From positions 28,818 to 92,817 of the forward strand of contig JAHDID010000022.1 in the NCBI GenBank assembly GCA_020630975.1: DNA of 64,000 bases, given 5' to 3'. Made by a program: the position numbers and the translations under genes. Below the pieces are notes generated by a model, which worked only from the letters and a program-made list of their open reading frames with translations, did not search any database and was not told the origin of the DNA. Shown here one piece after another: positions 4,513 to 12,067 of the stretch (position 1 is the stretch's first letter; every line of letters begins with the position of its first letter). Source of the DNA: Verrucomicrobiota bacterium (GTDB taxonomy: Bacteria > Verrucomicrobiota > Verrucomicrobiia > Verrucomicrobiales > DEV007).

Positions 4513-5874
4513 TTAATTCAAGACTGGATCGCCATATAGCGTGTGCCCGGTTGTCTCATTGATCTTCACATCAAAGAGTTCACCCGCCATACGATCGGCG
4601 TCGCCTTCAAAGATCACGATGCGATTGGTGCGCGTGCGGCCCGAGAGTCTTTCCTTGTTATTCTTACTCGGCCCCTCGCAGAGGATCTCCTGTGTGGTGC
4701 CGACCATGGCCTCGTTTTTGCGGATCACAATAGAATTTACCAGTTCCAGAAGATCCTGATTTCGCTCTTCCTTCACTCGCTCGGGGAGCTGCCCCTCCAT
4801 CTCGGCGGCAGGTGTGTCCTTGCGCTTCGAGTAGCGGAAGACAAATGCCTGGTCGAACTGGACCTGCTCGACAGCCTTTTTGGTCTCCAGATAGTCCTCC
4901 TCGGTCTCCCCAGGGAAGCCGACGATGATATCCGTAGAGATGGCGATATCTGGGCGCACGGCTTTCATCTTCTCGCAGATATCGAGAAATTTCTGCGCTT
5001 TGTAAGGCCGGCGCATCGCCTTCAGGATACGATCCGAGCCCGACTGCATCGGGAAGTGGACATGATCGACCAGCTTCGGCAGGTAGCCAAATGCCTGGAT
5101 CAAATCATCGCGATAGCCGATCGGGTGCGGCGAGGTAAAGCGGATTCGCTTGATCCCATCGATCTCATGCACCGCCTCCAGCAGCTGGGTGAAGGGACTC
5201 TTACCATCGACTCTAGGAAATTCTTTGATGCCGTACTGGTTTACGATCTGGCCCAGCAGCGTCACCTCGCGCACGCCCTGGTCGGCCAGGCGCTTGCACT
5301 CATCGACGATGTCTGGGATCGGGCGCCCCCTCTCTGGACCTCGTGTGTAGGGCACGATGCAGAAGGAGCACTTCATATTGCACCCCTGCATGATGCTGAC
5401 AAACTCGCTGATACCATGCTCCTTGTCCATATGGTCGCGGATGGTATTCTGCGAATCGACCTCCTCATCGATATCGACGATCGGCAGGCGCAGATCGTCC
5501 ATACGCGCCTGATCTTTTTGCTCCATCAGCTCCACACAGTGATCGACCACCTTGTGGTATTTCTGCGTACCAGCGACGAGATCGACATTGGGCAGTAACT
5601 TGGTCAGCTCATCGCCACGGCTCTGTGCCATGCAGCCGAGAAAGCCATGCACCATGCGCGGGTTCTTCTTTTTGTGCTTACTCATCTGGCCCATCATGCC
5701 GAGAGCTTTCTGCTCGGCCTGATCGCGCACGGAGCAGGTGTTTACCAGCAGAACGTCGGCCTCGGCCGCTTCTTTCGTGACGGTGAAGCCACGCTCGATG
5801 AACATCTGAGCAACCTGCTCAGAATCACGCTCGTTCATCTGTCATCCGTAGGTTTTGAGATATACCTTGGGCAT
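4513..5874 (-). CDS. miaB: MiaB tRNA methylthiotransferase, probable selenoprotein (Sec11)
   Basis: MiaB is a radical-SAM enzyme that converts i6A37 to ms2i6A37 in tRNAs reading UNN codons. The 453-residue frame starts at ATG 5874: MPKVYLKTYG, then TGA at 5842-5844, then QMNERDSEQVAQ. Family members carry Cys at the TGA position; it is the first of three ligands of the auxiliary [4Fe-4S] cluster. The other two are present as Cys47 (VNTCSVR) and Cys81 (FLGCMAQ). The radical-SAM triad is CNMKCSFC (about 165, 169, 172), followed by PYTRGPERGRP; a TRAM domain ends the protein. A SECIS-like hairpin directly follows the TGA. A call starting at MNERDS (5838) would drop an essential ligand. No clear Shine-Dalgarno precedes 5874. 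Alternative: a nonsense mutation or sequencing error, which would not explain the hairpin. Confidence 0.93.
5797..5844 (-). promoter_or_regulatory. Putative bacterial SECIS element with in-frame UGA in miaB
   Basis: Minus-strand sense. UGA is 5844-5842. Two nt later GAUGAAC (5839-5833) pairs perfectly with GUUCAUC (5803-5797). Inside lies CUGAGCA (5822-5816) paired perfectly with UGCUCAG (5812-5806), closing a GGU loop (5815-5813). The loop begins 27 nt after the UGA, within the range known for bacterial SECIS elements. The apical core GCA-GGU-UGC nearly repeats the SelB-binding core of E. coli fdhF (GCA-GGUC-UGC). Seen: UGA, stems and loop. Inferred: SelB recognition and Sec insertion. Confidence 0.85.
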
Positions 5875-6617: not shown

Positions 6618-7040
6618 ATGAGCGCACCTATAGCTGACTTTCCTGAGATCGTAGAGACCTTCGACCTGCTGGGCGATTGGGAGGAGCGATACCGCTACCT
6701 GATCGGCCTCGGTCGCAAACTCGACCTCCTGTCTGCCGACGAAAAATGCGAGACCAACCTCGTCCGCGGCTGCCAGTCCCAGGTCTGGCTGATCCCCGAG
6801 ATCGACGCCGACGGTAAATTTCGCTTCCGCGGCGAGAGCGATGCCTCGATCGTCAGCGGTCTGATCGTGGTGATCCTCGCTCTACACTGGGACAAGACGG
6901 CCAAAGAAATCCTCGAGATCGATGCCCAGAAAGAGCTCGAGCAGCTCCAGCTAGACAGCCATCTCACCGCCAGTCGTCGCAATGGTCTCTATGCCATGGC
7001 TCAAAAGATCCAATCCTGGGCCCAAGAGGCTGCCGCCTAG
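6618..7040 (+). CDS. sufE: SufE-family sulfur acceptor for Fe-S assembly
   Basis: A 140-residue SufE/CsdE family protein of typical length. It accepts persulfide sulfur from the SufS desulfurase and passes it to the SufBC2D scaffold in the cytoplasm. The active-site cysteine is Cys52 in VRGCQSQVWL, the family hallmark, and GESDASIVSGL follows as expected. It starts 30 bp after the preceding gene. No sufS or sufBCD lies in the window, so it stands apart from its partners. The closeness to miaB, an Fe-S enzyme, is suggestive but they are on opposite strands. Confidence 0.92.
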   Translation: MSAPIADFPEIVETFDLLGDWEERYRYLIGLGRKLDLLSADEKCETNLVRGCQSQVWLIPEIDADGKFRFRGESDASIVSGLIVVILALHWDKTAKEILEIDAQKELEQLQLDSHLTASRRNGLYAMAQKIQSWAQEAAA

Positions 7041-11077: not shown

Positions 11078-12067
11078 TCAGCTACCAACCTTCTCCCGGG
11101 CTGCATCAGCCAGTGGAGTGGAGAGGTAGCGCTCACCTGTGGAGCAGCCGATAGTGACGATAAGTTTGCCTTTGTTCTCGGCACGCTTGGCGATCTCGAT
11201 AGCCGCACAGACGTTGGCCCCAGTGGAAATACCTACGAGGATACCCTCCTCCTCTGCGATACGGCGAGCCATAGCGAAAGCGTCATCATTGCTCACTTTG
11301 ACACATTCGGTGATCTGCGCATCGCCACCGTCGCTGTTGAGGTGCAAGTTATCAGGAACGAAACCTGCGCCGGTGCCCTGAATTTTGTGTGGTCCAGGAG
11401 TCACATCCTCGCCCGCCAGAGTTTGGCTAATGACCGGAGAATCCTCTGGCTCAGCGGTAATGACCTGGATATCAGCATTCTTCTGCTTGAGCGTCTCCAC
11501 GCAGCCAGTCGCAGTGCCGCCAGTGCCTACTGCAGATACGACGATGTCGACTTTGCCATCGGTGTCTGCCCAGATCTCTTCAGCAGTGGTGTTGCGGTGG
11601 ACCTCTGGGTTAGCAGGATTGGAGAACTGCTGTGGGATGTAAGAGTTAGGCGTCTCGGCAGCGAGCTCTTCAGCCTTGGCGATAGCGCCTTTCATGCCTT
11701 TGGCACCCTCAGTCAGGACAAGCTCTGCACCTAGCAGAGCAAGTAGCGTGCGACGCTCCTTACTCATAGTCTCTGGCATAGTCAGGACTAGGCGGTAGCC
11801 TTTGGCCGCACAGACAAAAGCGAGTGCGATACCAGTATTACCACTAGTCGGCTCGATGATCACAGTGTCTGCAGTGATCTGGCCCGATGCCTCGCCAGCC
11901 TCGATCATGGCGCGACCGATACGGTCTTTCACCGATCCGAGGGGATTGAAAAATTCGCACTTCAGCGCGATGTCGGCCTCTAGGCCTTCCGTCACTCGGT
12001 TGAGCCGCACTAGCGGTGTATTGCCGATGGTATCTAGGATCGAATCGTAAACTTTTCCGTGAGCCAT
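11078..12067 (-). CDS. cysK: Cysteine synthase (O-acetylserine sulfhydrylase)
   Basis: A 329-residue PLP enzyme that makes cysteine from O-acetylserine and sulfide. Visible signatures are [10 protein letters not shown] near residue 15, NPLGSVKDR with the PLP lysine near 45, [11 protein letters not shown] binding substrate, GTGGTATG binding the PLP phosphate, and ISTGAN near the C-terminus. Length and motifs fit CysK rather than cystathionine beta-synthase. Its partner cysE is 11 kb away on the same strand. It has its own terminator and a divergent promoter region shared with the downstream-facing gene at 12273. Confidence 0.95.

What the first reader, a model, noticed from the sequence alone, without database searches (positions are those of the whole stretch)
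5842..5874. miaB carries an in-frame UGA at the first Fe-S ligand: probable selenocysteine MiaB
Seen: upstream of the usual-looking start MNERDS the same frame reads MPKVYLKTYG-TGA-Q, which is the exact MiaB N-terminus with TGA in place of the invariant cysteine codon (Sec11). Known: that Cys binds the auxiliary [4Fe-4S] cluster used for methylthiolation, with the partners here at Cys47 and Cys81, and the enzyme is not expected to work without it. Inferred: Sec is inserted and becomes a cluster ligand. I do not know of a characterised MiaB of this kind. Sec as an Fe-S ligand in a sulfur-inserting enzyme would be biochemically unusual.
Basis: partly seen in the sequence, partly recalled or inferred. 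Interest (0 to 1): 0.97.

Follow-up and report, generated by a model that had tools for sequence, protein, structure and literature searches.

The report
Selenocysteine form of tRNA enzyme MiaB
In this bacterium and at least 48 relatives, the gene for the tRNA-modifying enzyme MiaB has a UGA codon exactly where other MiaBs have an iron-sulfur-binding cysteine; the UGA is predicted to be read as selenocysteine, which would make MiaB a new kind of selenium enzyme.

Summary
On the minus strand, miaB (5874-4513) reads MPKVYLKTYG-UGA-QMNERDS, with UGA at 5844-5842, the position of the first ligand of the auxiliary [4Fe-4S] cluster. The UGA is not a one-off: by pattern 52 of 386 genomes of the order carry it in miaB, 49 of them read in full, including cultured Rubritalea marina DSM 17716. 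A SECIS-like stem-loop follows: all 7 pairs form in 36 of 49 UGA genes and 0 of 82 Cys genes. Codons before the UGA are under protein-level selection. The window's gene is nested among Cys-MiaBs, apart from the Rubritalea group, so Sec probably arose at least twice. MiaB is missing from a 2026 inventory of 119 prokaryotic selenoprotein families. Selenium insertion, ligation of the cluster by selenium and any benefit are inferred. Verdict: very probably a new selenoprotein family, a Sec-containing methylthiotransferase.

The parts
4513..5874 (-). miaB read through its UGA: 453 codons plus stop
   Evidence: TIGR01574 489 bits against a cut-off of 355
5842..5844 (-). in-frame UGA, codon 11, predicted selenocysteine; first of three auxiliary-cluster ligand positions
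   Evidence: TGA in 49 of 131 distinct genes; aligned Cys in solved MiaB 7mjv
5845..5874 (-). ten codons before the UGA (MPKVYLKTYG), conserved as protein
   Evidence: codons 2-10 against L022: 7 synonymous, 0 nonsynonymous differences
5805..5823 (-). SECIS-like stem-loop UCUGAGC-AGGUU-GCUCAGA, 7 bp
   Evidence: covariance model built without this gene hits 5844-5797 with 72.6 bits, E 3.5e-17
4513..5838 (-). shorter ORF from the internal ATG (MNERDS), as a gene caller would annotate it; lacks the first ligand
   Evidence: this 441-aa form is P0002 in the protein collection, on 3 contigs
5734..5736 (-). Cys47 codon (TGC), second auxiliary-cluster ligand position
   Evidence: motif from PMC5352715
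5632..5634 (-). Cys81 codon (TGC), third auxiliary-cluster ligand position
   Evidence: motif from PMC5352715
5359..5382 (-). radical SAM motif CX3CX2C (Cys165, Cys169, Cys172)

Best explanation
This is the only miaB gene found in the genome of a bacterium that has the selenocysteine machinery, and its in-frame UGA, at the codon of the first auxiliary [4Fe-4S] ligand, is predicted to be decoded as selenocysteine through a SECIS-like stem-loop just downstream. SelB would bind the AGGUU-capped hairpin and deliver Sec-tRNA(Sec) at the UGA, giving a 453-residue MiaB (inferred). The enzyme would then hold its auxiliary cluster by Sec11, Cys47 and Cys81 and turn i6A37, made by MiaA whose gene is present, into ms2i6A37 (inferred from homology). 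The likely gain is a sulfur-carrying cluster that tolerates oxidation better or is rebuilt more easily (speculative). Shown: codon, stem-loop, machinery, recurrence and selection before the UGA. Inferred: insertion, ligation, activity, benefit.
For: Complete Sec machinery in the same genome; single miaB. Same codon TGA in 49 of 131 distinct genes, among them two named isolates, R. marina DSM 17716 and R. profundi SAORIC-165. Stem 7/7 in 36 of 49 UGA genes and 6/7 in the other 13, against 7/7 in 0 of 82 and 6/7 in 3 of 82 Cys genes; slid controls pair at most 41.9% against 96.7%. The stem fits published bacterial SECIS constraints (PMC13188914). A model built from 29 UGA genes of another family finds the window's site with 72.6 bits. 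Codons 2-10 are under purifying selection. UGA and stem occur together in a lineage nested among Cys genes. Of 52 UGA genomes 39 have a tRNA-Sec of 89-95 nt and nine more have selA.
Against: No direct evidence of selenium in the protein. The hairpin's energy is not unusual for its composition (z -0.96, 31 of 200 shuffles as good) and L191 reaches only -6.2 kcal/mol, short of the published -7.5. Covariation is modest (34 of 500 shuffles reach it). Pairs that are independent on the tree number five: a complete stem goes with TGA in 4-5 and against it in 0 (p 0.0625 at best); with the looser mark of six pairs it is 3 with, 0 against, 2 undecided (p 0.25). With the gene's own codon use, 2.5% of random synonymous versions would form 7/7 pairs. 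For 4 of the 52 UGA genomes no machinery was seen (G354 and G325 neither marker; G289 and G337 no tRNA-Sec and selA not asked). miaA was not found in 6 of 38 UGA genomes. A ligand role for Sec is untested.
Confidence: 0.88

Rival explanations
1. The TGA is a sequencing or assembly error, or a nonsense mutation in a dying gene.
For: The nearest relative, L022, has TGT, one base away; the window is one draft assembly of 158 contigs whose reads were not seen.
Against: 48 other genes read have the same TGA, some from cultured isolates. The window's gene also has the complete stem, which 0 of 36 Cys genes of its own group have (2-5 of 7 pairs), and it needs several silent differences from L022. The 441-aa form is on 3 contigs of the protein collection. 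No other stop in 453 codons.
Confidence: 0.03
2. Translation starts at the internal ATG (MNERDS) and gives a MiaB without the first ligand; the UGA is never read.
For: Gene callers make this choice, and the shorter form still passes the MiaB cut-off (465.7 bits).
Against: Codons 2-10 before the UGA are conserved as protein: 7 synonymous and 0 nonsynonymous differences from L022, 5021 against 414 pairwise among the 49 UGA genes. A stem-loop and the Sec machinery would be unexplained.
Confidence: 0.03
3. The UGA is read by near-cognate suppression or another code and gives Cys or Trp, not Sec.
For: Not excluded by sequence alone; the sister gene has Cys at this place.
Against: tRNA-Sec, SelA, SelB and SelD are present and a SECIS-like element goes with the UGA; a plain Cys is one base away. 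No second UGA interrupts miaB.
Confidence: 0.03
4. Sec is inserted, but chiefly to couple the amount of MiaB to selenium supply; as a cluster ligand it does the same work as Cys.
For: Several Sec users keep Cys-MiaB: G154, G221, G143 and G158 have selA and Cys at codon 11, so Sec is not required by the chemistry. L152 (G221) looks like a return to Cys with most of the stem left.
Against: A costly UGA has been kept across six genera and appeared in a second lineage, which hints at some chemical advantage; no direct test.
Confidence: 0.2

Closest known systems
MiaB, tRNA (N6-isopentenyl adenosine(37)-C2)-methylthiotransferase (TIGR01574; solved chains 7mjv-7mjz)
   Same: Whole-length homology, equivalog score over the cut-off, CX3CX2C motif, UPF0004 spacing X35/X33
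   Different: UGA in place of the first auxiliary-cluster cysteine codon, with a SECIS-like stem after it
RimO and MtaB methylthiotransferases
   Same: Same superfamily and ligand layout
   Different: Their models stay below their cut-offs here (298 of 357 and 313 of 357 bits); no separate copy was found in this genome
Radical SAM selenoproteins TIGR04167 and TrsS (Table 1 of PMC13188914)
   Same: Radical SAM proteins predicted to contain Sec
   Different: Listed under other domain models (TIGR04167, NF045646), not MiaB or UPF0004; not compared by sequence here
HdrA and other Sec proteins of Fe-S systems (Table 1 of PMC13188914)
   Same: Sec in an Fe-S protein
   Different: Methanogen heterodisulfide reductase, no tRNA chemistry; that its Sec ligates a cluster is recalled, not seen in a call
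Formate dehydrogenase FdhA, the classical bacterial selenoprotein
   Same: UGA with a SECIS inside the coding region; Sec binds a metal centre (PMC13188914)
   Different: Mo/W enzyme; different fold and role

Membership tests
MiaB (TIGR01574) | Score over the curated cut-off of the equivalog model | tested here: met
   489.2 bits against 355.3
MiaB (TIGR01574) | Three auxiliary-cluster ligands, CX35-36CX32-33C | tested here: inconclusive
   Positions 11, 47, 81 with spacings X35 and X33; two are Cys, the first is a UGA whose product is predicted
MiaB (TIGR01574) | Radical SAM motif CX3CX2C | tested here: met
   Cys165, 169, 172
MiaB (TIGR01574) | UPF0004, radical SAM and TRAM domains | tested here: met
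   PF00919, PF04055 and PF01938 given for P0002, the 441-aa form
MiaB (TIGR01574) | i6A37 substrate made by MiaA in the same cell | tested here: met
   miaA 197.6 bits over the cut-off in the own genome; found in 32 of 38 UGA genomes
MiaB (TIGR01574) | Methylthiolation activity | not testable with these tools
   Needs tRNA mass spectrometry or an assay
Bacterial selenoprotein | In-frame UGA aligned with a conserved Cys of homologues | tested here: met
   49 TGA, 82 TGC or TGT of 131 distinct genes
Bacterial selenoprotein | SECIS: loop 3-9 nt with early G, stem 4-16 bp, 16-37 nt from UGA, at most -7.5 kcal/mol (PMC13188914) | tested here: met
   Own gene: loop AGGUU (or GGU), stem 7-8 bp, 25-26 nt, -11.0 kcal/mol; but L191 only -6.2, and the own energy is not special against shuffles
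Bacterial selenoprotein | tRNA-Sec, SelA, SelB and SelD in the genome | tested here: met
Bacterial selenoprotein | Selenium in the protein | not testable with these tools
   Needs mass spectrometry or 75Se labelling

The most novel reading that the evidence does not exclude
Selenium supply controls the tRNA pool of these bacteria: full MiaB is made only when selenium is there, so ms2i6A37, and with it the decoding of codons that begin with U, follows selenium. The tRNA-Sec of this genome has A36-A37-A38, the loop type that MiaA and MiaB use, so Sec-MiaB would also modify the tRNA that decodes its own UGA, a feedback loop; and the selenolate ligand retunes the sulfur-giving cluster.
Probability: 0.2. 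Interest if true: 0.93.

Novelty: new variant of a known kind. Interest (0 to 1): 0.83.

Why it matters
MiaB is a widespread tRNA enzyme whose auxiliary cluster carries or gives the sulfur, by a mechanism still debated (recalled; background passages in PMC5352715). A natural form with predicted selenium at one cluster ligand would be a ready probe (77Se resonance, Se-edge X-ray absorption) of how that cluster handles sulfur. It would add a tRNA-modifying radical SAM enzyme to selenoproteins, many of which resemble thiol oxidoreductases (PMC13188914), and could tie translation to selenium supply. It also shows an annotation fault: starting at the internal ATG drops the key residue. Cultured Rubritalea strains make the prediction testable now.

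Tried and rejected
Chance pattern hits: G128 and G165 in the order and G626 and G627 in the phylum match the DNA pattern but are not miaB. tRNA-Sec matches of 84-88 nt were taken for tRNA-Ser/Leu-like by length alone (my criterion: 89 nt or more) and not counted. A wider search over 387 genomes of the phylum (198 genera) gave no further UGA-miaB by exact pattern; other phyla were not searched. One common UGA clade was tested and rejected. Transfer of a short tract with the SECIS instead of a second origin stays open. Fold energy as proof of the stem was dropped as weak; in that call the L153 row used a wrong place and is not used. A search for printed accounts of Sec as Fe-S ligand gave listings of 1 and 5 papers, and passages of one of them, all off the point. 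A scan for other UGA-interrupted frames in the window gave no second candidate by eye; those frames were not tested by homology.

Full report
What is there. The gene lies on the minus strand. From 5874 down, the DNA reads MPKVYLKTYG, then TGA at 5844-5842, then QMNERDSEQVAQMF, and stays open to 4513. Read through, the protein has 453 residues and scores 489 bits against the MiaB equivalog model (cut-off 355); the RimO and MtaB models stay below their cut-offs. Residue 11 is the first of three ligand positions of the auxiliary cluster: with Cys47 and Cys81 the spacings are X35 and X33, which fit the CysX35-36CysX32-33Cys motif given for methylthiotransferases in PMC5352715 (passages seen). Solved MiaB (7mjv) aligns with query residues 3-451 and has Cys at this place. 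The mechanical ORF rule starts at the internal ATG, MNERDS, and the protein collection holds that 441-aa form, on 3 contigs (P0002).

The window's own genome (7.14 Mb, 158 contigs, 95.8% complete) has a tRNA-Sec over the Rfam cut-off that ARAGORN calls tRNA-SeC with anticodon TCA, and SelB, SelA and SelD over their cut-offs. One MiaB and no other UPF0004 protein were found. miaA is present. Raw reads could not be seen.

Recurrence. Codon 11 was read in 131 distinct miaB genes from 185 loci; two loci that begin after the codon were dropped: 49 TGA, 68 TGC, 14 TGT. The UGA genes include two named isolates, Rubritalea marina DSM 17716 (L073) and R. profundi SAORIC-165 (L083). A DNA pattern for the UGA form hits 54 of 386 genomes of the order; the reversed control pattern hits none. 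Two hits are not miaB. Of the other 52, 49 were read in full and three (G359, G377, G380) are known by the pattern only. Fifty-one of the 52 lie in six genera of one other family (f2), the one that holds the Rubritalea records; the window's genome is 1 of 74 genomes of its own family (f1) in that draw, and the only one with the pattern. In 387 genomes of the phylum (198 genera) the pattern gives the window's gene and two chance hits. Other phyla were not searched, so the full range is unknown.

Machinery in the relatives. Of the 52 genomes, 39 show a match to the tRNA-Sec model of 89-95 nt over the cut-off (counted from its table by length). Of the 13 others, nine show selA (in G324 as two pieces under the cut-off), G354 and G325 (83 and 86% complete) show neither, and for G289 and G337 selA was not asked. 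Over the 38 UGA genomes given, selA is found in 35; G248, which lacks it, has a tRNA-Sec. selA is also present in Cys-MiaB genomes (G154, G221, G143, G158, G132, G104, G065); it was not found in G193, G152 and G081 of the window's genus, nor in the outgroup genomes G001, G004, G021, G129 and G283. So UGA-miaB occurs among selenocysteine users, but many such users keep Cys.

The stem-loop. Nucleotides 22-40 from the U of UGA (window 5823-5805) read UCUGAGC-AGGUU-GCUCAGA. All seven pairs form in 36 of 49 UGA genes and six in the other 13; in Cys genes seven form in 0 of 82 and six in 3 of 82. Over 43 distinct UGA rows 96.7% of cells pair, against at most 41.9% when the partner strand is slid; one pair shows U-A, U-G and C-G. 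Codon choice shows it too: Ser TCT 34 of 49 against 0 of 82, Val GTT 44 of 49 against 8 of 82, Ala GCT 42 of 49 against 6 of 82. PMC13188914 (passages) gives constraints for bacterial SECIS: loop 3-9 nt with a G in the first two places, stem 4-16 bp, spacing 16-37 nt, at most -7.5 kcal/mol. Here the loop is AGGUU (GGU if A-U closes), the stem 7-8 bp, the spacing 25-26 nt, the energy -11.0 kcal/mol. Against this: the energy is not special for the composition (z -0.96, 31 of 200 shuffles as good), L191 reaches only -6.2, 34 of 500 shuffles reach the observed covariation, and with this gene's own codon use 2.5% of random synonymous versions would form seven pairs (0.23% with the codon use of Cys-MiaBs of its group). 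A covariance model built from 29 UGA genes of the other family, this gene left out, scores the window's site 72.6 bits, E 3.5e-17. The same model scores 48 Cys loci (of 82 Cys genes) 27.8-67.8 bits, much of which is shared coding sequence; the top one is L152, a TGT gene inside the UGA group with six of seven pairs, as expected of a recent return to Cys.

Reading through the UGA. Between the window's gene and its nearest Cys relative (L022, 87% identical) codons 2-10 differ by seven synonymous changes and no amino-acid change. Among the 49 UGA genes the same nine codons show 5021 synonymous against 414 nonsynonymous pairwise differences. Codons before a true stop would hardly be kept as protein.

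History. On a tree of 131 MiaBs with residue 11 masked, TGA against Cys needs at least six changes (five on well-supported branches). The window's gene is sister to the Cys gene L022 (SH-aLRT 99) inside a Cys clade. Holding all UGA genes as one clade is rejected (p-AU 5.6e-6, quick tree). In five independent pairs the complete stem goes with TGA in four or five and never the other way (p 0.0625 at best; five pairs cannot pass 0.05); with the looser mark of six pairs it is three with, none against, two undecided (p 0.25). So UGA and stem appeared together at least twice, or a short tract was transferred: codons 9-24 share 97.9% of bases (47 of 48) with R. marina but at most 85.4% with Cys genes of the own group, while outside the tract the gene resembles its own group. 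Inside the Rubritalea group returns to Cys are likely.

How it most likely works. SelB bound to the hairpin delivers Sec at codon 11; the enzyme has Sec11, Cys47 and Cys81 at the auxiliary cluster and otherwise works as MiaB. These steps are inferred from homology. Why selenium: a selenolate ligand may resist irreversible oxidation or ease the loss and rebuilding of a cluster that gives up sulfur; this is speculation. The genome's tRNA-Sec has the loop CTTCAAAA with A36-A37-A38, the loop type that MiaA and MiaB use (recalled), so the enzyme may act on the tRNA that decodes its own UGA.

What is known. PMC13188914 (May 2026) lists 119 prokaryotic selenoprotein families or subfamilies. I read its whole Table 1 (the last third of that section was not read) and saw no MiaB, methylthiotransferase or UPF0004 entry. 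The deep-Sep paper PMC12013277 (passages) reports nine new families, none of them MiaB. PMC5029168, PMC9312934 and PMC4807772 (passages) do not speak of it in what I saw. Full-text searches for selenocysteine with MiaB (14 papers) and selenoprotein with methylthiotransferase (7 papers), seen as listings with abstract starts, showed no paper on this subject; their full texts were not read. Rubritalea with selenocysteine gave one paper, on naphthenic acid degradation by its title. So I found no account of a selenocysteine MiaB in this library; most subscription papers, and all preprints, are outside it.

Noticed in passing
L152 (G221) 531-578: Cys (TGT) miaB inside the UGA group that keeps 6 of 7 stem pairs: looks like a recent return from Sec to Cys with a fossil SECIS.
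   Followed up: partly
L001 1499-1591 (own genome C137:29321-29413): The tRNA-Sec has anticodon TCA followed by A37-A38 after A36, a MiaA/MiaB-type loop (recalled rule), so it may itself be a substrate of the Sec enzyme.
   Followed up: partly
window 5803-5850 against L073: A 48-nt stretch (codons 9-24) is 97.9% identical to Rubritalea marina although the genes elsewhere are far apart: convergence or a transferred tract.
   Followed up: partly
G000 (own genome): Only one UPF0004 protein was found: no RimO or MtaB besides this MiaB.
   Followed up: no
window 6618-7040 + and 11078-12067 -: A SufE-type Fe-S sulfur acceptor (Pfam 135 bits; below the NCBIfam SufE cut-off) and a cysteine synthase A lie near miaB.
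   Followed up: no
L064: A record titled Lysobacterales (Pseudomonadota) carries a MiaB that groups with Verrucomicrobiota, probably a mislabelled or misbinned contig.
   Followed up: no
L154 (G230) and L155 (G368): miaB genes with Cys at codon 11 but one in-frame TAA elsewhere: sequencing error or decay.
   Followed up: no
G355: Two selA matches over nearly the full model in one genome.
   Followed up: no
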